A stretch of DNA of 64,000 nucleotides from Steroidobacter agaridevorans (lineage in GTDB: Bacteria; Pseudomonadota; Gammaproteobacteria; Steroidobacterales; Steroidobacteraceae): the NCBI RefSeq assembly GCF_009932555.1, contig NZ_BLJO01000001.1, positions 62,001 to 126,000 on the forward strand, in the 5' to 3' direction. Shown one piece after another: positions 9,115 through 49,473 of the stretch. Below the pieces are notes generated by a model that saw nothing but the letters and a program-made list of their open reading frames with translations, did not search any database and was not told the origin of the DNA. A program made the translations under genes and the position numbers. How positions within the stretch are numbered: position 1 is the first letter of the stretch; each line of letters starts with the position of its first letter.

Positions 9115-10260
9115 ATGGCAGCCTCCCTGCAAACGCGCATCGTCAACAGCATCGATCGCATCCCCGCCGCGCAATGGAATGCGCTGGCGCTCGGGGGCAA
9201 CCCGTTCGTGCGGCACGAGTTCCTGCTCGCGCTCGAGCGCGCCGGCTGCGTCGGTAAAGCGGCCGGCTGGCTGCCCAATCATCTGCTGCTCGAGGACCAC
9301 GGCCAGCTCGTCGCGGCCGTGCCGCTGTATCGCAAGAGTCATTCGTGGGGCGAGTTCGTCTTCGATTGGAGCTGGGCGCGCGCTTACGACCAGGCGGGCC
9401 TCTCCTACTACCCGAAACTCGTGAGCATGCCGCCATTCACGCCAGCGACCGGGCCTCGCTTGTTGCTCGCGCCGGGCGCATCCCCCGAGGTGCGCGCACG
9501 CTTGAGCACCGAGCTACTGACGTATGCGAAGTCCGAACGCATGTCATCGGCGCATCTGTTGTTCCTCAACGATGCGGATCGCGCGTCGCTGCGTGATGAA
9601 GGTTACCTGTGGCGCAAGGATTGCCAGTTCCACTGGCACAACCGCGACTACCAAACATTCGATGACTTCATCGCGACGTTCCGCTCCGACAAGCGCAAGA
9701 AAGCATTGCGGGAGCGTCGCCGTGTCAGCGAAGGCGGCGTGACGTTTCGCACGCTCACCGGCGCCGAGATGGACGCGAAACTCTGGAATATCGTGTTTGG
9801 ATTCTCAGCCGCAACGTTCGAATCGCACGGCCACGAGCATTATTTGAACGTCGAGTTCTTCCAGAGCGTCTCGGCCGTGATGCCGCAGTCCGTCGTGATC
9901 AAGCTCGCCGAGTATCAGGGCCACCCGATCGCGACCGCGATTTTCTTTCGCGGCGATGAGGTGCTGTACGGGCGCTATTGGGGCGCGGCCGCAAACTTCC
10001 ACAGCCTGCATTTCGAGACCTGCTACTACCAGGGCATCGAGTACTGCATCGAGCAGGGACTCAAGCATTTCGAGCCCGGCACGCAAGGCGAGCACAAGGT
10101 GCCGCGCGGCTTCGAGCCGACGACGACGTGGTCGGCGCACTGGATCGCCGATGCGCGCTTCCGTCGCGCCATCGACCACTATCTAAATGATGAGCGCGCG
10201 GCGATCGATCAATATATCCTGCAGGTCGAGGAACATACGCCGTACCACCGAGGGCCTTGA
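9115..10260 (+). CDS. FemAB/GNAT-like N-acyltransferase (DUF482, 'peptidogalycan biosynthesis/recognition' family)
   Basis: The 381-aa protein matches the GNAT-superfamily DUF482 family. Recognisable segments are 'AGWLPNHLLLEDHGQLVAA' near the N-terminus, a basic 'FRSDKRKKALRERRRV' stretch, 'GRYWGAAANFHSLHFETCYYQGI', and 'FEPGTQGEHKVPRGFEPTTTWSAHWI' near the C-terminus. The family is often called a peptidoglycan-related acyltransferase, but its substrate is not established. It ends 3 bases before aat, so the two are probably co-transcribed. Confidence 0.8.
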   Translation: MAASLQTRIVNSIDRIPAAQWNALALGGNPFVRHEFLLALERAGCVGKAAGWLPNHLLLEDHGQLVAAVPLYRKSHSWGEFVFDWSWARAYDQAGLSYYPKLVSMPPFTPATGPRLLLAPGASPEVRARLSTELLTYAKSERMSSAHLLFLNDADRASLRDEGYLWRKDCQFHWHNRDYQTFDDFIATFRSDKRKKALRERRRVSEGGVTFRTLTGAEMDAKLWNIVFGFSAATFESHGHEHYLNVEFFQSVSAVMPQSVVIKLAEYQGHPIATAIFFRGDEVLYGRYWGAAANFHSLHFETCYYQGIEYCIEQGLKHFEPGTQGEHKVPRGFEPTTTWSAHWIADARFRRAIDHYLNDERAAIDQYILQVEEHTPYHRGP

Positions 10261-37241: not shown

Positions 37242-38156
37242 CTACTGCCACGCACTCGCTTTCGTGTCCCCATTCAAGAACGGCAGCGTCGTGCTGACCA
37301 GCTCCGGTGCGAGGAAGATGTCGTAGTGGGTGTGGTTGGGCAGGATCGCGAGGCGATTCTGCGAGAGGTTCTCGCGCATCCAACCCGCGTCCTTCAAGCC
37401 GCCGCCGAGCAGCTGATAGAACTTGATGACGTGCTCGGGGCGATACATGTCCGAGTCGCCGAACACCAGCATCACCGGCATCTTCAACTTCGCGACATCC
37501 GCGGAGTAGTCATAGCCCTGCTTCATGAAACCGCCGATGGTGTCCAGCAAGCGCGGGAAATCGTCCGGCTTCGGCGCGACGGCGACGTACCCTTTGTACA
37601 TCGGCGTGTCCTTCATGTACTGGAACGCCTCGGCGTTCACCTGCCCCTGCTGAGCCAGGATCTCGGGATAGAAACCATCCGATGCATAGCCCGCGGACAC
37701 CAGCACCAGACGACGCACCATGTCCGGATGCTGCACGGCCAGTCGAAAACCAACACCGCCGCCCATCGAGTAACCGAGAACATCGATCTGCTTATAGCCC
37801 AGCTTTTGCAGCAGGCCATTCATGTCATTGCCCATCGCCTCGAGGCTGAACTTGCGAGTGCCGAGCTCGGTGCGCCCATGGCCTTGCAGATCGACCAGCA
37901 CGACCTGTCGCTGCTTCGTGAGCGTCGGCAGGAGCGGCGCGAACATATCGCCCGACCCCAAGCCGCCGTGTAGAAGCAGCAGCGGCTCGCCCTTGCCGCG
38001 GATCTCGTAGTAGTAGTTGATGCCGTTCATGGCGATGCGACCCGACTTGTCGGGCGCCTGAACGGTCGGGGCCGCGGGCTGACTGTCCGCCATCGCGGGC
38101 AGGCTGGAAGTCATTAATGCCATTGCGGCCAGAGCTGGGGCCAGGATGCGCTTCAT
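37242..38156 (-). CDS. Exported alpha/beta hydrolase
   Basis: The 304-aa protein has a signal peptide (MKRILAPALAAMALMTSSLP, cleaved near AMA-D) and an alpha/beta-hydrolase fold. The oxyanion motif is 'LLLLHGGLGSGDMF', the nucleophile elbow 'VLGYSMGGGVG', the acid region 'MLVFGDSDMYRPEH' and the His region 'LPNHTHYDIF'. The catalytic triad therefore appears intact. The substrate is unknown; esterase, lipase-like or peptidase activity are all possible. The ATG at 38156 has a GGAGA ribosome binding site; in-frame codons upstream lack one. Confidence 0.85.
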   Translation of the reverse strand: MKRILAPALAAMALMTSSLPAMADSQPAAPTVQAPDKSGRIAMNGINYYYEIRGKGEPLLLLHGGLGSGDMFAPLLPTLTKQRQVVLVDLQGHGRTELGTRKFSLEAMGNDMNGLLQKLGYKQIDVLGYSMGGGVGFRLAVQHPDMVRRLVLVSAGYASDGFYPEILAQQGQVNAEAFQYMKDTPMYKGYVAVAPKPDDFPRLLDTIGGFMKQGYDYSADVAKLKMPVMLVFGDSDMYRPEHVIKFYQLLGGGLKDAGWMRENLSQNRLAILPNHTHYDIFLAPELVSTTLPFLNGDTKASAWQ

Positions 38157-38306
38157 TGCTGAGTCTCCGTGTCGTTGAGTGCCAATCTGTCCTAAGGACG
38201 CCCTCGCCCGACGCCTGCCGACACCGCCGATGAGAAAAAATTCTGGAACCGCATGCCCGATCAGGACTTGATGTTCCATCGTCTTCACCGCTCGAGGTGC
38301 AGGGTC

Positions 38307-39044
38307 ATGGCCATCAGCTTTCCCAACGAGTCCACCGAATATCGCACCGCTCGCAACGCGCTGCTCGAACAGGAGATCGCGTTACGTCGACAGATGGAAG
38401 CGGTCGCCGTCCAGCGGCGCGCGCTCCCGGCCGGCGGCAAGGTGCCAGAGGACTATGAGTTCGACGGACTCGGTGCGGATGGCAAGGCCACCAAGATCAA
38501 GTTGTCCGCGCTGTTTCGCGACGGCACCGATTCCCTGGTGATCTACAACTACATGTTTCCTCGCCACCAGGGTGATACGCGCGCCGCCGCCGCGAGCGGC
38601 GTCACGTCGCAGCTGCCCAAAACGGCACAACCCTGCCCTTCGTGCACCGCCCTCATCGATCAACTCGACGCCGCCGCTCAGCACTTCGAAGCCGGTGGCG
38701 GAAACTTCGCAGTCGTGGCGAAGGCGCCGCTCGATCAGTTGCTGGGAGTGGCGCGAGATCGAGGCTGGCGCCACGTTCGTTTGTTGTCATCGGCGGGGTG
38801 CCCGAACTTTCGACGCGACTATCGCGGCGAAGACGAAGAAGGTCAGCAGGTACCGCTGGTGCTGGTGTTCAAGCGCGCTCGCGACGGCGCGATCCGATTC
38901 TTCTGGGCATCGGAGTTGATGTTTGCCCCGCCCGATTCCGGACAGGATCAGCGCGCCGCAGGCACGTTGGAGCCCTTCTGGAACCTGTTCGATCTCACGC
39001 CCGGTGGCCGTCCGGACTTCGCCGAGGAGCTCCAATACGAGTGA
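38307..39044 (+). CDS. DUF899 family thioredoxin-like protein
   Basis: The 245-aa protein fits the DUF899 family: an N-terminal 'TARNALLEQEIALRRQMEAVAVQRRALP' helix, 'YEFDGLGADG', 'LVIYNYMFPRHQ', a 'CPSCTALIDQLD' motif in the thioredoxin-like position (about residue 110), and 'EPFWNLFDLTPGGRPDF'. The CPSC motif suggests redox activity, but no function is established. The ATG at 38307 is preceded by GAGGTGCAGG. It abuts the stop of the convergent permease gene with no gap. Confidence 0.8.
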   Translation: MAISFPNESTEYRTARNALLEQEIALRRQMEAVAVQRRALPAGGKVPEDYEFDGLGADGKATKIKLSALFRDGTDSLVIYNYMFPRHQGDTRAAAASGVTSQLPKTAQPCPSCTALIDQLDAAAQHFEAGGGNFAVVAKAPLDQLLGVARDRGWRHVRLLSSAGCPNFRRDYRGEDEEGQQVPLVLVFKRARDGAIRFFWASELMFAPPDSGQDQRAAGTLEPFWNLFDLTPGGRPDFAEELQYE

Positions 39045-40157
39045 TCACTGGGCAGAGAGCGCCACCTGCCCACGCCGCTGCCAGAGCTGCCATACGCCGT
39101 AGGTCAAGAGCGGCAACACGTAGACCGCGATCAGCACATACGCAAGGCCGCGATAGCCGCGAGCGATCAGGGTGACGAGACCGAAGCGCTCGGCGAGCAG
39201 CATCGCGATCACGAGCAGCACGCCGGCGGCGATGAAGCGGGCCCTCGCCGAGAGATCTCGCCCGCGCTTCGCGCGCCACACCTGCTCGATGCGCTGATTC
39301 ACCGCATGCACGCTGCCCGTGCCGCTCTCGAGCAGCGCCGCGAAGATCATCAGCTGGAACACGCCATGAAACACGGGCGCATCCAGACGCTGCAGCAGAA
39401 AGTCAGAAGGCAAGGCCTCGGCGGAGATGTCCGGGTAGTAGGCAACCATGCAGATGAAGAACAGCAATGCCGGGATCATCGCGAGCGGCCCGCACAAGGC
39501 GCCCGCGATGATGGCGTCGCGATTGCTGGTCAGATGCCGCAGCACCGGCAGGATGATGACCGCCCCGACGATGTTATAGCCCGCGTACGTCACGCCCGCG
39601 AGCAGCCAACCGTCGGTCGGCACATCCAACGCCAGGTTCGCCGAGATCCGATCGCCGAACTTGCCCAGCGACAGCACGACGAACAAGGCATACACGCCGT
39701 ACAGGAAAAACGAAACCCACTTGAACAGCTGCTCGACCGAGGCGTTGCCAAACGCCACGAACAACGAGATGCCCAGCATCAGACACAGCGTGCCCGCGAG
39801 CGCCGGCCAGCCGAACAACGCCGCGCCAATGGCGCCCGCGGCCGCGCCGAACACGGCGAGAATCAAGACGATGAACAAACAATAGGCGATCTCGAAGATC
39901 ATCCAGCCCCGCCCGAGCAGGTGACGGAAGAACGTGCGGTAATCCTCGCTGTGCGTGGCGCGCGCGAACAGAAACGTCGCGATACACACGACGCTCCAGA
40001 TCACCGCCGCGAACAGCATGCCGAACAACCCGCCTTGCGGACCGCTCGGCAGGAAGAACTCGACCAGCTCGCGGCCGGTCGCATACCCGCCGCCGATGAC
40101 CACGGCCTTGAAGGCGAAGCCCGGCAGCAGGTAGCGTTGGAACCAGGAGGCTTGCAT
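39045..40157 (-). CDS. YkvI-type inner-membrane permease (APC-superfamily-like)
   Basis: The 370-aa protein is a polytopic membrane protein with about ten helices. The first helix motif 'GGGYATGRELVEFFLPSG' resembles YkvI-family proteins, which are distant relatives of amino acid transporters. Helix 6-7 regions contain 'YAGYNIVGAVIILPVLRHL'. Its ATG overlaps the DUF1611 stop (TGATG), so it is translationally coupled and is the last gene of the D-amino-acid/peptide operon. The likely job is import of an amino acid or small peptide; the substrate is inferred from context only. Confidence 0.65.
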   Translation of the reverse strand: MQASWFQRYLLPGFAFKAVVIGGGYATGRELVEFFLPSGPQGGLFGMLFAAVIWSVVCIATFLFARATHSEDYRTFFRHLLGRGWMIFEIAYCLFIVLILAVFGAAAGAIGAALFGWPALAGTLCLMLGISLFVAFGNASVEQLFKWVSFFLYGVYALFVVLSLGKFGDRISANLALDVPTDGWLLAGVTYAGYNIVGAVIILPVLRHLTSNRDAIIAGALCGPLAMIPALLFFICMVAYYPDISAEALPSDFLLQRLDAPVFHGVFQLMIFAALLESGTGSVHAVNQRIEQVWRAKRGRDLSARARFIAAGVLLVIAMLLAERFGLVTLIARGYRGLAYVLIAVYVLPLLTYGVWQLWQRRGQVALSAQ

Positions 40158-41194
40158 CAGCCGCGCAAGCAGTGATCGAGCAGCCGCTCGAATTCATCGC
40201 CGCCGCGAATCGGATCGGCGACCGGCACGCCCAACCGCTGGCTCTCCGTCGCCATCAACTGCCGCGCTTCGCTCTCCGACAGCTTCGAGGTGTTGATACT
40301 CACGCCGCCGCAGCGAATCGCCGGGTTGGTCCGCCGTCCCAATCTCAAATTCAGATCGATCGTCTCTTCGAGACTCGGCAAGGGATAGTCCGGCATGCCG
40401 AGCACGTGCGTGCGGCCCGCCTCGTGACACACGACGATCACATCCGGCTGACTGCCATGTAACAAACCGAGGGACACGGCGGCATACGAGGGATGAAACA
40501 ACGAGCCCTGCCCTTCGATCACATCCCAATGATCGGCCGCCGCGTCGGGCGACAGCACCTCCGCCGCGCCCGCCTCGAAGTCCGAGACCACCGCGTCCAT
40601 CGGCATGCCACTGCCGGCGATCATGATGCCCGTCTGCCCGGTGGCGCGAAAATCCGCCTTCACGCCGCGCCGTCGGAACGCCTTCGCGATCGCAAGCGCG
40701 GTGTATTTCTTGCCCAGGGCGCAATCCGTTCCGACCGCCAGCAGTCGCTTGCCACTGCGTTTGCGACCGCTGGCGGTCGGAATTCCTCGCGGTGGCGTAC
40801 GGACGTCGATCAGGCGACGCCCATGACGCTCGGCGGCTGCAACCAACGCCGGCGTGTCGACGAGTCGTGTATGCATGCCTCCCACCAGATCCAGCCCCGC
40901 CTCCAAAGCTTCCAGGAGCGAGGGCATCCAGCTATCGAGAATGCGCCCGCCGATGTTGGCCACGCCAATGATCATGGAGCGGGCGCCCTTCGCGTAGGCC
41001 TGCGCAGGCGTGAGCTTGGGCAGTCCGAGCGTGACGGCGTCGGGCGAGCAGGCCAGCTCGCCGACGCATAGCTCGGGCGCCCAATCCCGCAGGCCAAAGG
41101 CCGTTTTCGCGAAGCCCGCCTCGGTGGTATCGCCGAGAAACAGCAGATACGGTTGCGGCAGATCCAAGGAGGTCGAGAGGTTTGCTGTTGTCAC
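40157..41194 (-). CDS. DUF1611 family protein, DgcN-like (D-glutamate N-acetyltransferase candidate)
   Basis: The 345-aa protein has the two-part DUF1611 layout: an N-terminal Rossmann-like part (residues 1-145, with 'IGVANIGGRILDSW') and a C-terminal P-loop-like domain with 'AVGTDCALGKKYTALAIAKAF' (about 151-171). Conserved motifs include 'RATGQTGIMIAGSG', 'DFEAGAAE' and 'EGQGSLFHPSYAAVSLGLLHG'. To my knowledge a characterised member, DgcN, acetylates D-glutamate and works with an epimerase-family racemase, DgcA. The nearby epimerase gene supports that reading. It precedes and overlaps the permease. Confidence 0.75.
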   Translation of the reverse strand: MTTANLSTSLDLPQPYLLFLGDTTEAGFAKTAFGLRDWAPELCVGELACSPDAVTLGLPKLTPAQAYAKGARSMIIGVANIGGRILDSWMPSLLEALEAGLDLVGGMHTRLVDTPALVAAAERHGRRLIDVRTPPRGIPTASGRKRSGKRLLAVGTDCALGKKYTALAIAKAFRRRGVKADFRATGQTGIMIAGSGMPMDAVVSDFEAGAAEVLSPDAAADHWDVIEGQGSLFHPSYAAVSLGLLHGSQPDVIVVCHEAGRTHVLGMPDYPLPSLEETIDLNLRLGRRTNPAIRCGGVSINTSKLSESEARQLMATESQRLGVPVADPIRGGDEFERLLDHCLRG

Positions 41195-41213
41195 GATTCG
41201 ATCAACTTATCAC

Positions 41214-43460
41214 TTAAAACTGGAAATCGACGCTCAAACCCACGGTGCGCGGCTGGAGCACGGCGACATCCAGGCGCACGGGCTGGTTCAGCCCGTCCGT
41301 CGTCACGCCGCCGCCGGTGAACGCGCGCTCATCGGTCAGATTCTTCACGAACAATCGCACCGTCACGCTATCGAACTGCACATCGGCATTGAGATCCAGC
41401 ACGTCGTAAGCAGGCAGTGCGTACGCCAGGTTGCCTACCGTCGTGACGACTTGCGAATAACGCTCGTCCACGTAGCGCCAGCCGCCGCCGACGTTGGCTT
41501 CGCGACCGCCGAACGCCGTGAATGCGTAGTTGGCGGTGATCGCGCCACTCCATTCCGGCACGCCCGGCAGCTGCACGTCCAGTGCGTTCGGCAGGTCCGG
41601 CGGGGTCGACTTCAAGGTGGCATCCGTATAGGAGAAATTGAAGCCGAGCTGCAAGCCCTCGGCGACCGAGAACAACGATTCCACCTCGATACCCTGGCTC
41701 TCCGCATCGCCCGCGTTGTCCAGGCCGGTCACGCCGCCAAACGTCCGGGCTTGCTGGATGTCCTTCCAATCGATGTAAAACACGGCGGCATTCAGCAGCG
41801 CGCGACCGTCCATGAAGATGCTCTTCCAACCGAGCTCATAGTTGGTCAGCTCATCGGCCTCCACCGCCGGCGGCATCCCAGGGACGATGGTGTTCGGACC
41901 GCCCGGTCGATAGCCCGTCGCGACGCGCGCGTAGAGCATGGTGTCGTCGGTCACATGCCAGCGCGGGCTGATCGCATAGGTGACCACGTCTTCGTCGGAC
42001 TCACCCGGATCGTTCGCGGTCACGATGATGGCGCCACTGCTGATCTGCCGGAACTTCTGATCGTTCTGTGCATAACGCAAACCGGTGATGACATCGAAGC
42101 TGTCGTTGATCTTGAACGTCACATCGCCGAAGACGGCGAGCTCCTTGTACTGCGAAGGCAACTGCGCGAACGCGAAATACGGCAGGAACCCTTCGATCGG
42201 CACACCATTGATATCGGTCGCATCGACCACCTGCGTGTTCTCGCTCTCCTCGTCGGTATAGAACGCGCCGATGCGCCACTGGATCGCCCCCTCGCCGGTG
42301 GACGCGAGCCGGAACTCCTGCGTCCACTTCTCGTGGTCGAGGCTAATGTTGAACTTGCTCAGGCCTTCGTCGAAGGGCGCGCCCGGCAGCTCGAACAGCA
42401 GGCTCAAGATGGGAAACAACGAGCCGTACGTGATGCTCGCGTCCTGCGTCTGCGACGTGTGCGTTTTGGAATAGCTGGTCGCGGACACGAAGTCGGCCCA
42501 GCCCAGATTCCAGTTCAGGGTTGCCGAGTAGTAATCCACATCCTTGCTGAACGGCTCCTCGTTCGGGATCGACGTGCCGAGATCGCCGAAGCTGGCCGTC
42601 CCGCGGAACGGATCGGTATCGACCAGCGACAGCGCCATCGTTCCATTGTTATCGGAGTCCAGCTGCTGCCACAGCGCGTTCACTTTGAGCGAGGCCGCAT
42701 CGTTGATCCGCCACAGCAGCGAGACGCGCCCACCGCTCTGCTCCAGCTCGTTCGCGTCTTCTTCCCCGGTATAAACGTTGTCGATATAGCCCGGCGTGTT
42801 TTGCTGGAAGTAGCTCGCGCGCAATGCGACCGAGTCCCCCAGCGGCACGTTGACGCCGGCTCGCGCGGCCCAGCCCAGATCGTCAGCACCGCTCACGTCG
42901 GAGCCTTCGACACCGGCACGGAACTCCAGTGCATCGGTGCTCGGCTCCTTCAGAACGTATTTGAGCAAGCCGCCCATGGAGCCTGCGCCATAGAGCGTGC
43001 CTTGCGGGCCACGCAGCACTTCGACGCGTTCGATGTCATAGGGCATGAGATCGAGCGCGAAGGTGGTGGCGCGTGCGTAGTTGTTACTCGCACCGAGCGG
43101 CGTTTCATCGATGTAGGTTCCCACGACCGAGCCCGGGCCGACCGGTGCAATACCGCGCAAGGTGATGCTCGTCTGACCGGGGCTGCCGCCATTGGCGATG
43201 TTGATGCCGGGCATGTAGGCCGCATAGTCCTGCAGCTGCGTCGCATGCACGCGAGTCAATTGTTCCTCGGCGAACGCACTCACCGAGACCGGCACGTCCT
43301 GCACGCTTTCGCTGCGCTTCTGTGCGGTCACGACGATCTCGTCGATCACGCCCGCCGCGCCCTCTGCCGCTCCCACATTGGTCGCGCTCATCAGCAGCGC
43401 CAAGGCGCTGGTGGAGACGCCGATCGTCATCCCGCGCGACAGATTCAAAAAGTCACTCAT
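41214..43460 (-). CDS. TonB-dependent receptor
   Basis: The 748-aa outer-membrane protein has a signal peptide (cleaved near NVGAAEG), a TonB-box-like 'IDEIVVTAQKR', a plug domain ('VPVSVSAFAEEQLTRV', 'RGIAPVGPGS', 'VEVLRGPQGTLYGAGSMGGLL') and a 22-strand-type barrel. The barrel ends in the aromatic-terminated 'TVGLSVDFQF'. There is no N-terminal signalling domain, so it is not a FecA-type transducer. The ATG at 43460 has GGGGAG six bases upstream. Its place between the racemase and DUF1611 genes suggests a peptide or amino-acid-derived substrate rather than a siderophore. Confidence 0.93.
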   Translation of the reverse strand: MSDFLNLSRGMTIGVSTSALALLMSATNVGAAEGAAGVIDEIVVTAQKRSESVQDVPVSVSAFAEEQLTRVHATQLQDYAAYMPGINIANGGSPGQTSITLRGIAPVGPGSVVGTYIDETPLGASNNYARATTFALDLMPYDIERVEVLRGPQGTLYGAGSMGGLLKYVLKEPSTDALEFRAGVEGSDVSGADDLGWAARAGVNVPLGDSVALRASYFQQNTPGYIDNVYTGEEDANELEQSGGRVSLLWRINDAASLKVNALWQQLDSDNNGTMALSLVDTDPFRGTASFGDLGTSIPNEEPFSKDVDYYSATLNWNLGWADFVSATSYSKTHTSQTQDASITYGSLFPILSLLFELPGAPFDEGLSKFNISLDHEKWTQEFRLASTGEGAIQWRIGAFYTDEESENTQVVDATDINGVPIEGFLPYFAFAQLPSQYKELAVFGDVTFKINDSFDVITGLRYAQNDQKFRQISSGAIIVTANDPGESDEDVVTYAISPRWHVTDDTMLYARVATGYRPGGPNTIVPGMPPAVEADELTNYELGWKSIFMDGRALLNAAVFYIDWKDIQQARTFGGVTGLDNAGDAESQGIEVESLFSVAEGLQLGFNFSYTDATLKSTPPDLPNALDVQLPGVPEWSGAITANYAFTAFGGREANVGGGWRYVDERYSQVVTTVGNLAYALPAYDVLDLNADVQFDSVTVRLFVKNLTDERAFTGGGVTTDGLNQPVRLDVAVLQPRTVGLSVDFQF

Positions 43461-43507
43461 GGTCGCTCCCCGTATAGTTGTTGATGACCGCGCCATTGCG
43501 GGTTACT

Positions 43508-44539
43508 TCACATCACATCGCCCCAGACATTGCTCGCGCAATACACGCTGCCATCCTGGTACGTGATGCTGGGGTGACGGTCCTCGGCCAGAAACACCGG
43601 CCCGTCGAGATCGACGTAGTCGCACAGCTGCGCGACCACGAAGGCCGGCGCCATGGCGAGGCTGGTGCCCACCATGTTGCCGACCATGACTTGCATGCCG
43701 AGGCGTCGTGCCTCGCGCGCCATCGCGAGGGCTTCGGTCAGCCCGCCGCATTTATCGAGCTTGATGTTCACGACCTGGAAACGGCCCCGCAGGCCGCGCA
43801 CGTCGGCGAGCCCCTGCACGCTTTCGTCCGCCGCGAGCGGAATCGGGCTCTTGAACCCTTCGAGGTCCGCCTCGCGACCGCGGGGCAGCGGCTGCTCGAC
43901 GAGCTTCACGCCGGCTTCGACAAAGGACGGCATGATGGCTTTGAGCTTCTCGAGGGAATAACCCTGGTTGGCGTCGACCCCGATCCACGCATCGGGACGC
44001 AGCCTGCGCACGGCGCGCACGCGCTCTTTGTCCATTTGCAGATCGCCATCGAGTTTCAATTTGAGTGCTTTGGCGTGCGGCAGCGCTTCAGCCGCGCTCA
44101 CGACGGCCGGCGGACCATCCGCACTCAAGGTGAAGGTCGTCACGCATGGCGCGACGATGTCCACGCCGGCCAGGCGCCACACCGGCACGCCGACATGCTT
44201 CGCTTCGAGATCCCACAGCGCGCAATCCAGCGCGTTGCGCGCACCGCCGGGCGGCAACAGCTCGAGCAATTGCTGTCGCGTGATGCCGCTCTCGATGATG
44301 GAGCGATGCCGCTCCAATGTTTCTACGATGCCCTCCGGCGTGTCCTTCAAGTAGTACACACCGGCCGCCTCACCGCGGCCGCGACCTCGCTCACTTTCCA
44401 CGGTGACGACGGCGACGGGCACTTCGGTAAACGTATAGCCCGAGATCCGGAACGGATTGCGCAAGCGCAGCCGCTCGATCCCAACCTCCATCTGCATGGG
44501 AACCGCGGTGCTCATCGTCATCGCCTCGGCAGTGCTCAT
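43508..44539 (-). CDS. Enolase-superfamily dipeptide epimerase / N-acyl amino acid racemase (DgcA-like)
   Basis: The 343-aa enzyme belongs to the MLE/dipeptide epimerase group. Catalytic and metal residues are visible: the KxK pair K160/K162, metal ligands D189 (GVDANQG), E215 (VEQPLP) and D238 (ADES), and the opposing lysine in 'NIKLDKCGG' (about residue 260). Known relatives are L-Ala-D/L-Glu epimerase (murein peptide recycling) and the N-acetyl-D-glutamate racemase DgcA; the DUF1611 partner favours the latter. It starts 7 bases after the serine hydrolase stop with a GAGG site. Confidence 0.85.
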   Translation of the reverse strand: MSTAEAMTMSTAVPMQMEVGIERLRLRNPFRISGYTFTEVPVAVVTVESERGRGRGEAAGVYYLKDTPEGIVETLERHRSIIESGITRQQLLELLPPGGARNALDCALWDLEAKHVGVPVWRLAGVDIVAPCVTTFTLSADGPPAVVSAAEALPHAKALKLKLDGDLQMDKERVRAVRRLRPDAWIGVDANQGYSLEKLKAIMPSFVEAGVKLVEQPLPRGREADLEGFKSPIPLAADESVQGLADVRGLRGRFQVVNIKLDKCGGLTEALAMAREARRLGMQVMVGNMVGTSLAMAPAFVVAQLCDYVDLDGPVFLAEDRHPSITYQDGSVYCASNVWGDVM

Positions 44540-44546
44540 GAAGGCC

Positions 44547-46544
44547 TCAGTAGTTCACATCGAACGCGATGAGATGGAACGTGAGCGCGATGTACAGCAG
44601 CAGGAGCAGCGACAACGCGAGCACGACGGCCCAGGCCTTCGCATACCACTTGCGCGGGCTGCGCACGACGACCCACGCATTCCAGACACCGAAGATCGCG
44701 CCGCCGACGAATACGACCAGCGACAACAGCTGCATCAGCCAGACCCAGCCATCGGAGCCTGTCGAGAGCAGCGTCAGATTGCCCATCATCTTGGCTATCG
44801 TGATGGCCCAGGCGATGAGGATCGCAACCGCAGCCGTCGCGGCGATTCGCACCCAGCGATGCGCCTTGGCATCGTCGCCCGACAACCCGTAGGCGACGCC
44901 ATAGTGCCGACGCACGAGCGCGGAGACCGGCCAGGCGAGACTGGTCAGCAGCAGCGAGATCAAGCCGATGATCGCCGTCGGCAACAGCCAGCCCGGCGAG
45001 CGCGAGGCGGGCGTGCGATCGAACATCATGAACGGCGAGACACCATCGAAGCTGAAGCGCACCACCTGCCCGTCCTTCACTTCGGCGGAGAGCAGGCTCT
45101 CGCCATCGGCGTCGCGGTAGACGAACGGCTCGACTTCGCGCCACTTGATCGGCACGCCGGCGAGATTCAGCGCCATCGACACGCTGATAGTGTTATCCGG
45201 ATTCGGAATGACCTTGACGGGACCGGCGAGGCCCAGCAGCTTGAAGAAGCTCGAATCGATGCGACGCGAATTCTCATACACGCCGGCCATCATCCGAGCG
45301 TGCTCCGCCGCGGTCTTGTCATCGACCTTGCCGTCGAGCGTCGGGCCCGGCAGATAACGATCGGCGAACTGCTCGAACAAGGTGGCACGGACGTTTTGCG
45401 CCGCCCCGCCCTTGCCGGGACTGTTCACGGAGATGTACATGCCGACGCCGTCGTCGATGAACAAATGCAGATCGCTGTGGAACCAGTTGGTGTCGCCGCC
45501 ATGGCCGAGCGCGCGACGGCCGTTGTAGTTCTGCTCATAGAAACCGAGCAGCATGCGATGCACGCGCGGCAGGATGGTGAGCGGCGTGCCATGCATCTGC
45601 TTGGCCGTGTCCTCCTGCAGGATGCGCGCCGATCCGAACGCGCCGTTTTGCAGATGGGCGATCATGAACTTCGCCATGTCCGCGCCGGTTGCGGCGAGGC
45701 TGCCGGCGGGCGCCGGGCCGACGATTTCATACGGCTTCGCCTCGCCCTCGGAGGCGAGGTTATAACCGCTCGACATCAGCGGCTTCAGGCTCTCCGGCAG
45801 CGGCTGACGGAAGCTCGCGTGCTGCATGCCCAACGGCGCGAAGATGTTCTGTTCGATGTAGTCATCGAACGGCACGCCCGACACACGCTGCACGATGTAA
45901 CCGGCCAGCGATGTCGCATAGTTGGAATAAGCCGGCGTCGTGCCAGGCGCGAAGATGCGCTCGGGCACCCAGTGCTTGAGCAGCTCGTCGTACGGCTTCA
46001 CCGGCTCGCCGCCTTCCTCGCCCATCAAGCCCTTCAGCTGCTCTTCGAAGCCCGCGGTGTGGGTCATGATGTTCCGTAGCGTCACGGGCTGGCCGTCACG
46101 CGGCGGAATCTCGAAATCGAGATATTGATTGACGTCGGCGTCCAGATCGAGCTTGCCCTGCTCGACCTGCTGCATCACCGCCGTCCAGGTGAACAGCTTG
46201 GAAATCGAGCCGGGCCGGAACAGCGTGAGCTCGGGGTCGACCGGCTTCTTGGTTTTGACGTCGGCGTAGCCGTAACCCTTCTGCGCGAGCACCTGCCCGT
46301 CCTTCACGACCACCACGACCGCGCCGGCGATATCGCCGATCTGCAGGGCGTACGGCATGTAACCGTCGAGCCAGGCCTCGACGTTCTCGCGCGTCAGTGG
46401 AGCCGCTCCGGGCGGTTCTGTCTGCGGCACGGTCGTTTCGGCCGCCGGGCCCGGCGGCGGCAGCTGCGCCCCCTCCTGTGCCCACCCAGGACTCGCCCAG
46501 GAACACAGGGCGGCCAGAAACATCGTCAGCACGCGTGCGCGCAT
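44547..46544 (-). CDS. Exported beta-lactamase-family serine hydrolase with C-terminal membrane domain
   Basis: The 665-aa protein has a signal peptide (cleaved near GWA-Q) and a class C beta-lactamase/DD-peptidase domain with S113xxK116 (PGSISK), the YxN element Y206-S-N208 and an HGG element at 348-350. A linker domain follows (about residues 390-480), then about four membrane helices (from about 490 to the end). It is therefore anchored with its catalytic domain in the periplasm. Relatives include D-aminopeptidases, D-Ala-D-Ala carboxypeptidases and esterases. It is first in the operon, with a GTGAGGA site before the ATG at 46544. Confidence 0.88.
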   Translation of the reverse strand: MRARVLTMFLAALCSWASPGWAQEGAQLPPPGPAAETTVPQTEPPGAAPLTRENVEAWLDGYMPYALQIGDIAGAVVVVVKDGQVLAQKGYGYADVKTKKPVDPELTLFRPGSISKLFTWTAVMQQVEQGKLDLDADVNQYLDFEIPPRDGQPVTLRNIMTHTAGFEEQLKGLMGEEGGEPVKPYDELLKHWVPERIFAPGTTPAYSNYATSLAGYIVQRVSGVPFDDYIEQNIFAPLGMQHASFRQPLPESLKPLMSSGYNLASEGEAKPYEIVGPAPAGSLAATGADMAKFMIAHLQNGAFGSARILQEDTAKQMHGTPLTILPRVHRMLLGFYEQNYNGRRALGHGGDTNWFHSDLHLFIDDGVGMYISVNSPGKGGAAQNVRATLFEQFADRYLPGPTLDGKVDDKTAAEHARMMAGVYENSRRIDSSFFKLLGLAGPVKVIPNPDNTISVSMALNLAGVPIKWREVEPFVYRDADGESLLSAEVKDGQVVRFSFDGVSPFMMFDRTPASRSPGWLLPTAIIGLISLLLTSLAWPVSALVRRHYGVAYGLSGDDAKAHRWVRIAATAAVAILIAWAITIAKMMGNLTLLSTGSDGWVWLMQLLSLVVFVGGAIFGVWNAWVVVRSPRKWYAKAWAVVLALSLLLLLYIALTFHLIAFDVNY

Positions 46545-46594
46545 CGCATCCTCACCTGCATGGGGGGCCGCTTCTTGGGCGGCGGTATTTTCTC

Positions 46595-46610
46595 CTATTG
46601 GCAATAATAG
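46595..46610. promoter_or_regulatory. Candidate operator palindrome in the divergent promoter region
   Basis: CTATTGGCAATAATAG contains the odd-centred palindrome TATTG-G-CAATA (46596-46606) and outer arms CTATT/AATAG. It overlaps the -10 box and expected transcription start of the operon promoter, where a repressor such as the adjacent XRE-cupin protein could block transcription. Binding is inferred from position only. Confidence 0.5.
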
Positions 46611-46631
46611 TCCTGCTTAGAGAATCGTCAA
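46604..46631 (-). promoter_or_regulatory. Sigma-70 promoter of the serine hydrolase/epimerase/receptor operon
   Basis: On the minus strand TTGACG (46631-46626) is separated by 16 bases from TATTAT (46609-46604), a good match to consensus. The predicted start near 46597 gives a leader of about 50 bases before the serine hydrolase ATG. Confidence 0.65.
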
Positions 46632-46692
46632 CCTGATCATGCAAAACAGTTCCGGCGCGAGCCTGAGCCGGCATCCGCTACAATCAGCCGCG

Positions 46693-47448
46693 ATGAAAAC
46701 ACCCAAACCCGCCGAGAAGTCAGCCGTGCAGCAGCGCACCGAGCGTCCCGCCGACAAGCCGACGCTCGGCCGCGTGCTGCGGGGTCTGCGCACCCGCAAT
46801 GACTGGACGCTCAAGCAGATGAGCGATCGCACCGGCATCCCGCTGTCGACGCTCGCGAAGGTCGAGCACGACCGGCTCACGCTCACCTACGACAAGCTGT
46901 TGCAGTTGAGCGAGCGGTTGAAGATTCGAATGTCGGATCTGTTCGCCGAGTCGAGCGAGCCCTCGCCGCAGCCGGTGACCGCCCGACGCAGCATCGGCAA
47001 AATGGAGCGCGCGATCCGCGTCAACACGCCCAACTACGATTATTTCTATTTATGCGCGGAGCTGCGGCGCAAACGGATGATTCCGATCCTGACGCGCATC
47101 CGCGCGAAGAGCGTCGAGGAATTCGGCGAGCTGGTGCATCACTCGGGCGAAGAATATATCTACGTGCTCGAAGGCGAGATCGAGATCCACACCGAGTTCT
47201 ACGATCCCATCGTGTTGTCGGCCGGCGAGTCCATCTATCTCGATTCGAACATGGGCCACGCCTATGTCGCGGCCGAAGGCTGCGATGAAGCGACGGTGCT
47301 GGGCGTGTGCTCGAGCGCGGAAGAAGAAGATCTGATGGAGTCCTTGATGGAGCTGCACGGCGACGATCAGGTGCGTCTGGAGCCCCCCGCCGAGCCGCCC
47401 CCCGCCCCCAAAGGCAAAGGTCCAGCGAAGAAGAAAACCGCGGCCTAG
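46693..47448 (+). CDS. XRE-family transcriptional regulator with C-terminal cupin domain
   Basis: The 251-aa protein has a helix-turn-helix domain (about residues 25-82, 'LGRVLRGLRTRNDWTLKQMSDRTGIPLSTLAKVEH'), a cupin_2-type sensor domain (about 110-215, with 'HHSGEEYIYVLEGEIEIHTEFYDPIVLSAGESIYLDSNMGHAYV'), and a Pro/Lys-rich tail. XRE-cupin regulators commonly control amino acid or polyamine use. It is divergent from the peptide operon and is its obvious candidate regulator. The start is uncertain: an ATG at 46639 would add 18 residues; a TACAAT box at 46679-46684 favours 46693. Confidence 0.88.
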   Translation: MKTPKPAEKSAVQQRTERPADKPTLGRVLRGLRTRNDWTLKQMSDRTGIPLSTLAKVEHDRLTLTYDKLLQLSERLKIRMSDLFAESSEPSPQPVTARRSIGKMERAIRVNTPNYDYFYLCAELRRKRMIPILTRIRAKSVEEFGELVHHSGEEYIYVLEGEIEIHTEFYDPIVLSAGESIYLDSNMGHAYVAAEGCDEATVLGVCSSAEEEDLMESLMELHGDDQVRLEPPAEPPPAPKGKGPAKKKTAA

Positions 47449-47547
47449 CACACGGCCCTTTCAGCGATTTTCGCTCCGTGTCACCATTCGCCCGCGGGTG
47501 ACGAATACGACCGTCGGTCGATAAGAACAGCGGGAGGACACTTGGAC

Positions 47548-49473
47548 GTGCGCCGGGTCTTGCAACGGATCGCCTGTTATCTATGGGCAATCGTGCCCGT
47601 GCTACCTGTCATGGCCGCCGATGTCGAAGCCGACGATCTGATCGAGCGTTTCGCCGCCGTTGAAACGATCTGGAGCTCCGCCGCCTCTCCCGATGGTAAA
47701 TTTGTGTTGCTGGGTTGCTCCCACCAGCAACTGCGGGCGGCGTGCGTCTACGAACTGGATGCAATGGGCAAGGCGCCCATCATCCTCAGCGCCCCTGGAG
47801 AGAATCGATGGCTCAGAAGCGCCGAGTGGCTCGACACTGATTGGGTGCTGCTGGAATTGAGCAGGTCCATGGAAATGGACGGGAACCGAGGCTGGACCGC
47901 CGCCCTGGCGAGCAACGTCCGCACGGGCGTCACCAAGCCCTGGAGCCTTCCGGACGTGGCTTCCAGGCCCGCCAATGCGCCGGGTGAGTTCATCGCTCGT
48001 ACGCCAGGGATGGTCGTTCGCGGCGATGTGAACACGGGTAAAGTGAAATACCGCGAGGCGCTCCATCCCGACACGACACAGCTGTGGTTCGACGCGCTCG
48101 GCGAAAGGTCGATCGAGCTGCGCACGGATCGGAAACAGAATGTCTTCGCACTCCGCGGCAAGGACGGCAAGCCGGTGCAATTGAAACTAGGTCCGCTACC
48201 CGAAAAATCCCCCCTAGCTCCGTTGTTTCTCGGCCCGGTCCAGGGTGGCCGGCGTGTCGCGGCCGTGGGCTATTTCGAGGGTGAAGTGCAGCGCTATCAG
48301 GAGTTCGATGTCGAGACCGGCGAACCCGTACCGCGCGACCCGAGGATACCTGCGGAGAACTTGCTCTACTTCAGCAAAGCGCCAAGATCCGACGACGTCA
48401 TCGGTTTCACTTACGGCACCGGTATCGGTCGCCACTTCTTTTTTGACGAAACGCTGCAGAAGACTCAACTCGGCATCGCGAAAGCGCTGAGCGGCCTGAC
48501 CATGAGGTTGGAATCGTGGTCGGACGACATGTCCGCGTTTACCGTAAGCGCGCGCCCGCCCGGAGGAGGTTCCGAAACACACTACCTGTTCGATCGCAAA
48601 CAAGGTTCGTTGTCGCCGCTCGGCGCAGCGCGCCCGCAGCTCGCGGATTTGCCGTCCCTGTCCGTTGCGACCATTGAATACACAGCGCGCGATGGCCTCG
48701 AGATCGAAGCATCCGTCACCTTGCCAGCGGGCCAGCGCGCCGAGCATGGCCCTTTTCCTTTGATCGTGATGGCGCGCGCCGAATTCGCGGGACGCGACGA
48801 TGGCGGATTCGATTGGTGGGCCAACTTCCTGGCTCAACGAGGATATGCCGTTCTTCGTCCAAACGTCCGAGGCGCATCGGATCGCGGCAAGGCGTTTCTC
48901 AGCGCCGGCTTTGGCGAATTCGGCGGCGCCATGATCGACGACCTGATCGATGGCGCGCGCTTCCTCGTTGGCTCGGGCCTTGCGGATCGGAACCGAATTT
49001 GCGCCGCCGGACGAGGCTATGGCGGTTATGCGGCGCTCATGATGGGTTTACGCGAACCTGGATTGATCAGATGCGCCGTAGCAGTGAACGCCATCACCGA
49101 TCCTGTCACCATGTTCGGTCGTGTGCTGCAGTTTACAAATGAGCAATCCGAAGCATTCCAGTATTGGGAAACCTACATCGGCACGCGCTACAACGACAAA
49201 GCCGCAGCAACGGCGATCTCGCCTGCACGCAGCGCGCAGTCGCTCAGGGTGCCCGTGCTGCTGTTGCATGACACTGACAGATTGCTCGCGAAGGCGTCTC
49301 AGTCGCGCCATCTCAAGGAAGAAATGGATCTCTATCAACGATCGGCGCGGCTGGTCGAATACACAGCGGCGGATCCGGCCCTGCTGACGTACAAAGCGCG
49401 CCACACCGTGCTTACGGAGAGCGACGCGTTCCTGAAGGAGCACCTCGGCGGTGGCGCCACGGCCGGTGAATAA
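47548..49473 (+). CDS. S9 (prolyl oligopeptidase/acylaminoacyl-peptidase) family protein lacking the catalytic serine
   Basis: The 641-aa protein has a signal peptide (cleaved near VMA-A), a beta-propeller-like N-terminal domain (about residues 40-370) and a C-terminal alpha/beta-hydrolase domain. The S9 nucleophile elbow, normally GxSxGG, reads G-R-G-Y-G-G with Gly490 (codon GGC, 49015-49017) at the serine position, one base from AGC. The candidate acid (HDTDRLL) and His (KARHTVL) regions remain. It is thus probably a non-catalytic or binding paralogue. The GTG at 47548 lies 9-10 bases after GGAGGA; a TTG at 47542 is the alternative. The gene follows the XRE-cupin regulator on the same strand. 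Confidence 0.85.
   Translation: MRRVLQRIACYLWAIVPVLPVMAADVEADDLIERFAAVETIWSSAASPDGKFVLLGCSHQQLRAACVYELDAMGKAPIILSAPGENRWLRSAEWLDTDWVLLELSRSMEMDGNRGWTAALASNVRTGVTKPWSLPDVASRPANAPGEFIARTPGMVVRGDVNTGKVKYREALHPDTTQLWFDALGERSIELRTDRKQNVFALRGKDGKPVQLKLGPLPEKSPLAPLFLGPVQGGRRVAAVGYFEGEVQRYQEFDVETGEPVPRDPRIPAENLLYFSKAPRSDDVIGFTYGTGIGRHFFFDETLQKTQLGIAKALSGLTMRLESWSDDMSAFTVSARPPGGGSETHYLFDRKQGSLSPLGAARPQLADLPSLSVATIEYTARDGLEIEASVTLPAGQRAEHGPFPLIVMARAEFAGRDDGGFDWWANFLAQRGYAVLRPNVRGASDRGKAFLSAGFGEFGGAMIDDLIDGARFLVGSGLADRNRICAAGRGYGGYAALMMGLREPGLIRCAVAVNAITDPVTMFGRVLQFTNEQSEAFQYWETYIGTRYNDKAAATAISPARSAQSLRVPVLLLHDTDRLLAKASQSRHLKEEMDLYQRSARLVEYTAADPALLTYKARHTVLTESDAFLKEHLGGGATAGE

What the first reader, a model, noticed from the sequence alone, without database searches (positions are those of the whole stretch)
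39045..49473. Possible D-amino-acid-peptide acquisition and catabolism locus
One minus-strand operon joins a membrane-anchored periplasmic serine hydrolase (SxxK/YxN/HGG), an enolase-superfamily epimerase, a TonB receptor, a DUF1611/DgcN-like protein and a YkvI-type permease. A divergent XRE-cupin regulator faces it. DUF1611 plus a dipeptide-epimerase homologue is the DgcN/DgcA pair linked to D-glutamate catabolism (established knowledge). Adding an outer-membrane receptor, an exported D-peptidase candidate and an inner-membrane permease makes a complete import-cleave-racemise route for murein-type peptides such as L-Ala-D-Glu. That five-part combination is an inference I have not seen described as a unit.
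Basis: partly seen in the sequence, partly recalled or inferred. Interest (0 to 1): 0.78.

Follow-up and report, generated by a model that had tools for sequence, protein, structure and literature searches.

The report
Conserved locus for eating D-amino-acid peptides
A soil-type bacterium carries a compact gene set, shared with distantly related bacteria and sometimes on plasmids, that looks built to import, cut and convert peptides containing mirror-image (D) amino acids; which D-amino acid it handles is not settled.

Summary
In detail: a tight minus-strand operon encodes an exported S12 serine hydrolase with a predicted C-terminal membrane domain, a DgcA-type epimerase, a TonB receptor, a DUF1611/DgcN protein and a permease of predicted LeuT fold, facing a divergent XRE-cupin gene. 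It is more than chance: of 48 long stretches found through the permease, 29 hold all five families and 36 hold DgcA+DgcN+permease; 20 random stretches held no DgcN and no permease. Relatives often add a dipeptide symporter (POT), M19 dipeptidases, a second S12 hydrolase or D-aminoacylase-type amidohydrolases, which strengthens the reading 'D-residue peptide scavenging'. A promoter motif recurs in 13 of 33 loci searched and once in this genome. Two Sphingobium and Croceicoccus plasmids carry the same order, with the permease annotated as hypothetical. The S9 peptidase (47542-49473) is not part of the unit. I found no paper describing the unit in an incomplete library.

The parts
44547..46544 (-). 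Exported S12-family serine hydrolase (beta-lactamase fold), 665 aa, signal-peptide-like start, predicted C-terminal four-helix membrane domain; ORF can be extended to TTG 46604 but that lies at the end of the promoter
   Evidence: PF00144 221 bits; catalytic residues invariant in 14 sequences; model with four long C-terminal helices, residues 517-664
43508..44539 (-). Enolase-superfamily epimerase/racemase, DgcA-type, with G-Y-T-F loop (G34, F37)
   Evidence: NF042940 380.8 bits (cut-off 400), AEE NF011708 233.6 (cut-off 343); KxK, D, E, D, K and DxD kept; loop
41214..43460 (-). TonB-dependent receptor (start ATG 43460 or 43496)
   Evidence: PF00593 and PF07715
40157..41194 (-). DUF1611, DgcN-type N-acetyltransferase homologue
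   Evidence: NF041892 462 bits (cut-off 480); 7xrj 356 bits
39045..40157 (-). Inner-membrane permease, LeuT/APC fold predicted
   Evidence: No Pfam/NCBIfam hit; model pLDDT 78; matches include amino-acid transporters BasC and AgcS, and also Nramp, choline and sugar transporters of the same fold
46604..46631 (-). Operon promoter: TTGACG, 16 bp, TATTAT, with the recurring motif across the first hexamer and spacer
46693..47448 (+). Divergent XRE-cupin regulator (upstream start 46639 possible)
   Evidence: HTH and Cupin_2; XRE-cupin gene in 33 of 48 permease stretches

Best explanation
A conserved, regulated locus for scavenging peptides that contain D-amino acids. Inferred route: the TonB receptor takes oligopeptides into the periplasm; the membrane-tied S12 hydrolase cuts them at D-residues; in many relatives an exported M19 dipeptidase releases free amino acids, or a POT symporter carries dipeptides in; the LeuT-fold permease imports the freed D-amino acid or a derivative; in the cytoplasm DgcN acetylates it and the DgcA-type enzyme racemises the N-acetyl form to L, or epimerises imported L-D dipeptides directly. 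The XRE-cupin protein controls the operon at the shared promoter motif. Shown here: gene content, conservation, co-occurrence, catalytic motifs, signal-like starts, shared promoter motif. Inferred: every activity, the order of steps, the regulator's binding site, the substrate.
For: Gene families. 29 of 48 stretches with all five; 20 random stretches with no DgcN and no permease. In 60 genomes of the own family 11 of 11 with the permease also hold DgcN, against 15 of 49 without (Fisher 2e-5; genomes are related). Added genes: POT 289 bits, cut-off 130; M19, four proteins scanned, 237-383 bits, 30 of 42 with a signal-like start by a crude rule; one amidohydrolase nearest in the PDB to N-acyl-D-glutamate deacylase, another to D-aminoacylase. 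Same order on the two plasmids viewed of four sphingomonad ones matched. Promoter motif: 0 in 796 kb of control counting both strands, once in the own genome.
Against: No activity or expression was tested. TonB receptors and S12 hydrolases have many uses. One of the pair is missing in some loci (L011, L013); 7 of 48 permease stretches hold neither dgcA nor DgcN, so the permease may have wider roles; distant archaeal relatives lie by hydantoinase/oxoprolinase genes in two of three records viewed. POT is in only 17 and M19 in 29 of 48. The promoter motif was read off the same loci, so its enrichment is partly circular, and 15 of 24 XRE-facing regions lack the exact form.
Confidence: 0.72

Rival explanations
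1. One reading: a murein-peptide route, with D-Glu or L-Ala-D-Glu as the actual substrate.
For: Nearest characterised names are DgcN and DgcA, the D-Glu pathway; DxD motif kept; an associated amidohydrolase is nearest in the PDB to N-acyl-D-glutamate deacylase; two proteins over the DgcA cut-off in the same family, L057 (418 bits) and L059 (407 bits), have the same G-[YH]-x-[FW] loop, and L075 and L076 (403, 410 bits) have G-K-V-W.
Against: Both loop arginines of E. coli AEE are Gly and Phe/Trp in 36 of 37 enzymes of permease loci; all four DgcA and all four DgcN operon members scanned are under their cut-offs. The loci were not searched for murein sugar-handling genes.
Confidence: 0.38
2. Uptake and conversion of free D-amino acids or N-acyl-D-amino acids, with peptides playing little part.
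For: The triple dgcA-DgcN-permease stands without S12 in L007 and L015, beside deacylase-type amidohydrolases.
Against: S12 (membrane type) is in 37 of 48, TonB receptor in 37 of 48, M19 in 29 of 48, POT in 17 of 48 permease stretches.
Confidence: 0.2
3. Degradation of a D-residue-rich antibiotic or natural product (beta-lactam, cyclic or N-acylated peptide) rather than nutrient scavenging.
For: S12 is related to class C beta-lactamases; a class A beta-lactamase-like gene sits between POT and permease in L014.
Against: S12 scores 88 bits against a class C cut-off of 415; a DgcN/DgcA pair has no clear place in beta-lactam breakdown (inference).
Confidence: 0.08

Closest known systems
DgcN-DgcA D-glutamate pathway (Yu et al. 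2023, ISME J 17:537; not held, seen only as a citation, and the pathway through passages of PMC12363236 and PMC10845958)
   Same: Homologous N-acetyltransferase and N-acetyl racemase, in one operon
   Different: Here tied to an exported S12 hydrolase, TonB receptor, permease and XRE-cupin gene; operon members scanned fall below both NCBI cut-offs. The gene neighbourhood of the published cases was not seen.
L-Ala-D/L-Glu epimerase YcjG of murein peptide recycling (E. coli; role recalled)
   Same: Fold, catalytic lysines and metal ligands, DxD motif
   Different: 233.6 bits against a cut-off of 343; both loop arginines replaced
N-succinylamino acid racemase route (recalled)
   Same: Acylate, racemise, deacylate logic for D-amino acids
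   Different: Acyltransferase here is DUF1611 (the other is recalled as GNAT); uptake and cutting parts added
Microcystin mlr cluster (recalled)
   Same: S12 hydrolase and a POT-type transporter for D-residue peptides
   Different: Not compared by sequence; MlrA was not searched for; an MlrC-like M81 gene was seen only near one non-permease locus (L050)

Membership tests
DgcN (NF041892) | Equivalog cut-off 480 bits | tested here: not met
   462.2 bits; three other operon members 444-454
DgcA N-acetyl-D-Glu racemase (NF042940) | Equivalog cut-off 400 bits | tested here: not met
   380.8 bits; three other operon members 352-381
DgcN-DgcA pathway | Both genes in one operon | tested here: met
   Same operon, TonB receptor gene between; directly adjacent in L007 and L015
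DgcN-DgcA pathway | Activity on D-Glu and N-acetyl-D-Glu | not testable with these tools
   Needs assay
L-Ala-D/L-Glu epimerase | Equivalog cut-off 343 bits | tested here: not met
   233.6 bits
L-Ala-D/L-Glu epimerase | Catalytic KxK, D-E-D, K and DxD | tested here: met
L-Ala-D/L-Glu epimerase | Loop arginine recalled to bind the Glu side chain (chain positions 24 and 27 of 1jpd) | tested here: not met
   G34 and F37 in the window protein; 36 of 37 in permease loci. Same loop in two proteins over the DgcA cut-off, so not decisive for N-acetyl-D-Glu
S12 serine peptidase | SxxK, YxN, HxG | tested here: met
Class C beta-lactamase (NF033085) | Equivalog cut-off 415 bits | tested here: not met
   87.6 bits
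Murein recycling system | Murein sugar or amidase genes in the locus | not tested
   No search made for them
Microcystin mlr cluster | MlrA-D homologues | not tested
   No comparison made

The most novel reading that the evidence does not exclude
A self-contained, horizontally spread 'D-peptide utilisation locus', comparable in logic to a polysaccharide utilisation locus: outer-membrane import, D-stereospecific cutting, two interchangeable inner-membrane routes (POT for dipeptides, M19 plus permease for free amino acids), and an acetylate-then-racemise step whose DgcN/DgcA pair has changed specificity to D-amino acids other than Glu.
Probability: 0.28. Interest if true: 0.78.

Novelty: new variant of a known kind. 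Interest (0 to 1): 0.6.

Why it matters
D-amino acids in cell-wall debris and natural peptides are thought to be slow to degrade. A recognisable multi-gene locus that brings together outer-membrane uptake, cutting, inner-membrane uptake and conversion would help predict which bacteria recycle such material, would give a working hypothesis for a DUF1611 branch and an unnamed transporter family, and offers a set of candidate D-specific enzymes whose substrate can be tested directly.

Tried and rejected
Not part of the unit: S9 peptidase 47542-49473, DUF899 38253-39044, alpha/beta hydrolase 37242-38288. In L010 DUF899 and the hydrolase stay but the S9 gene is absent; in L011 and L012 an M19 gene follows the permease and the gene beside XRE is another one.

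Substrate from the loop motif alone: not decisive. The role of the arginine is recalled; PMC3605383 had none of the six terms, the PMC8142540 passages did not treat it, and two dipeptide-epimerase papers are not held. The numbering R21/R24 rests on a recalled D297 (one search gives chain positions only).

A strict palindrome as operator: the form with six central bases matched exactly in 1 of 167 loci, and the form with five gave no match in the window with 3 mismatches. Only the direct motif is claimed.

Haloarchaea: six records hold distant permease relatives (27-32%); I viewed three: one lies by DUF1611, two by hydantoinase/oxoprolinase. One S12 relative in H. turkmenica had no DUF1611 or epimerase annotated nearby.

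Literature: searches of open-licence PMC papers listed no paper that describes the unit; the library lacks most subscription papers, and the ISME J 2023 paper is not held.

Full report
Observation. The operon is real and tight: S12 hydrolase 44547-46544, DgcA-type epimerase 43508-44539, TonB receptor 41214-43460, DgcN/DUF1611 40157-41194, permease 39045-40157, all minus strand, gaps of at most 47 bp, and a divergent XRE-cupin gene. A promoter-like match (TTGACG-16-TATTAT) at 46631-46604 is the best of three in the region; shuffled sequence gives 1.8 such matches on average, so the weight lies on its conservation, below. It places the S12 start at ATG 46544, which gives a signal-like start. The S12 model (mean pLDDT 71.5) has a catalytic part, a beta-rich part and four long C-terminal helices at 517-664. 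The permease model (pLDDT 78) matches LeuT/APC-fold transporters, among them the amino-acid transporters BasC and AgcS, but also Nramp and choline transporters, so the fold does not name the cargo.

Where it lies. The window genome (8.0 Mb) is close to Peristeroidobacter agariperforans (permease 98% identical). It holds five DUF1611 genes and five DgcA matches above 360 bits. A second dgcA-DgcN-permease triple (77, 87, 82% identical) lies beside two D-aminoacylase-type amidohydrolases and a TonB receptor (L007). Another locus has TonB receptor, S12, dgcA and POT (L047).

Conservation. The permease scan of GTDB contigs gave 11 loci; L020, a partial 37% match, was dropped from then on. XRE, S12, dgcA, TonB, DgcN and permease are all kept in order in P. 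agariperforans and P. soli; Steroidobacter gossypii lacks dgcA there; TMPK1 lacks DgcN but keeps XRE, S12, dgcA, POT and permease; Sphingobium, Novosphingobium and Luteimonas keep most parts. The permease was found in 11 of 60 genomes of the own family (E to 1e-3), 3 of 276 of the class (E to 1e-40), 4 of 397 of the phylum (E to 1e-60), 22 of 149 of the family of G501 and 5 of 147 of the family of G699 (E to 1e-40).

Counts. I scanned 56 permease loci (the window's own locus is not among them). The 48 of at least 16 kb were counted; 8 shorter ones were set aside. All five families: 29 of 48; with XRE-cupin: 23; dgcA+DgcN+permease: 36; dgcA or DgcN: 41; DgcN directly upstream of the permease: 32. 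By the group labels I gave: Steroidobacteraceae 4 of 12, sphingomonad set 20 of 27, Luteimonas/G699 set 4 of 6 (all five families). Single families: DgcN 39, dgcA 38, S12 membrane type 37, TonB 37, XRE-cupin 33, second S12 31, M19 29, amidohydrolase 20, POT 17. Twenty random 20-kb stretches, taken only from genomes of the G501 and G699 families: TonB 4; one each of second S12, dgcA, POT and amidohydrolase; none of the rest. One stretch is not one operon, and the loci are not independent. In the own family all 11 permease genomes have DgcN against 15 of 49 others (Fisher 2e-5) and a DgcA match of at least 360 bits.

What the added genes say. After dgcA, relatives carry a POT symporter (one scanned: 288.8 bits, cut-off 130.2), an M19 dipeptidase (four scanned: 237-383 bits), both, or, as in the window, neither. 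By a crude rule 30 of 42 M19 proteins of permease loci have a signal-like start and 7 a twin-arginine-like one, and some starts were miscalled. Of two amidohydrolases compared with the PDB one is nearest to N-acyl-D-glutamate deacylase and one to D-aminoacylase; one M19 is nearest to 2i5g and next to a renal dipeptidase, 3id7. Of four sphingomonad plasmids with the permease I viewed two: XRE, serine hydrolase, dipeptide epimerase, (peptide MFS transporter in one) TonB receptor, DUF1611, hypothetical protein, serine hydrolase, then dipeptidase or amidohydrolase.

Specificity. The epimerase keeps KxK, the D-E-D metal ligands, the second lysine and DxD. Where E. coli AEE reads I-A-R-G-S-R the window reads I-S-G-Y-T-F, G34 and F37 facing the two arginines. 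Of 67 DgcA-type ORFs 4 short ones were dropped (L118, L056, L072, L080), and L145 was not called; of 63 kept, 38 lie in permease loci, 37 with the loop, 36 of these G-[YH]-x-[FW]; the exception in L036 lies about 12 kb from the permease. Of 25 from other loci 24 have the loop: 11 with the first arginine, 4 with G-[YH]-x-[FW], of which L057 and L059 exceed the DgcA cut-off. So the loop argues against the AEE label but does not exclude N-acetyl-D-Glu. That the arginine binds Glu is recalled, not read. Dipeptide epimerases with other specificities, also for hydrophobic residues, are known (passages of PMC13338154). Of 68 DgcN ORFs 64 were kept; 37 of the 39 near a permease group together: one clade in FastTree, but two label changes in a quick IQ-TREE (shuffled mean 20.8); L038 and L040 fall outside.

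Regulation. It was read off these loci, so this is partly circular. The window carries a copy with one mismatch, the only place in its genome within two mismatches. A dedicated operator is likely; binding is not shown.

Mechanism and judgement. The anatomy fits outer-membrane import, periplasmic cutting at D-residues, import as dipeptide (POT) or amino acid (permease), and acetylation plus racemisation or direct epimerisation. The core pathway is known for D-Glu: NCBI names, passages of PMC12363236 and PMC10845958. I found no description of the combined locus in ten paper searches of an incomplete library. I rate it a new variant of a known kind: a well-supported unit with an open substrate.

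Noticed in passing
window 47542-49473: S9 prolyl-oligopeptidase-like gene downstream of the XRE gene; absent at this place in L010, L011 and L012, so probably a lineage-specific neighbour.
   Followed up: partly
L047 6845-15320 (G000 contig 14): Another related locus of the same genome: TonB receptor, S12, dgcA, POT, next to what by eye is a sigma/anti-sigma pair (not scanned).
   Followed up: partly
L006 2062-9208 (G000 contig 17): DUF1611 gene followed by an amidohydrolase, an S9-like stretch and a gene matching the penicillin acyltransferase family AAT (64.5 bits).
   Followed up: partly
L014 1310-2275: Class A beta-lactamase-like gene (PF13354, 165 bits) between POT and permease in a Rhodospirillales MAG.
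   Followed up: no
L050 68-1546: MlrC-like M81 metallopeptidase about 5 kb from a DgcN-dgcA pair.
   Followed up: no
L041 about 9300-9450 (G051 contig 31): Only a DgcN fragment between permease and dgcA; a full-length DgcN match lies on another contig of that genome.
   Followed up: partly
L170, L171, L172: Haloarchaeal megaplasmids carry distant permease relatives (27-29%), one beside DUF1611, two beside hydantoinase/oxoprolinase genes.
   Followed up: partly
L009 7080-9313: DgcN over the NCBI cut-off (513 bits) divergent from a PLP-dependent (PF00291) gene, with no dgcA in the 19 kb fetched.
   Followed up: no
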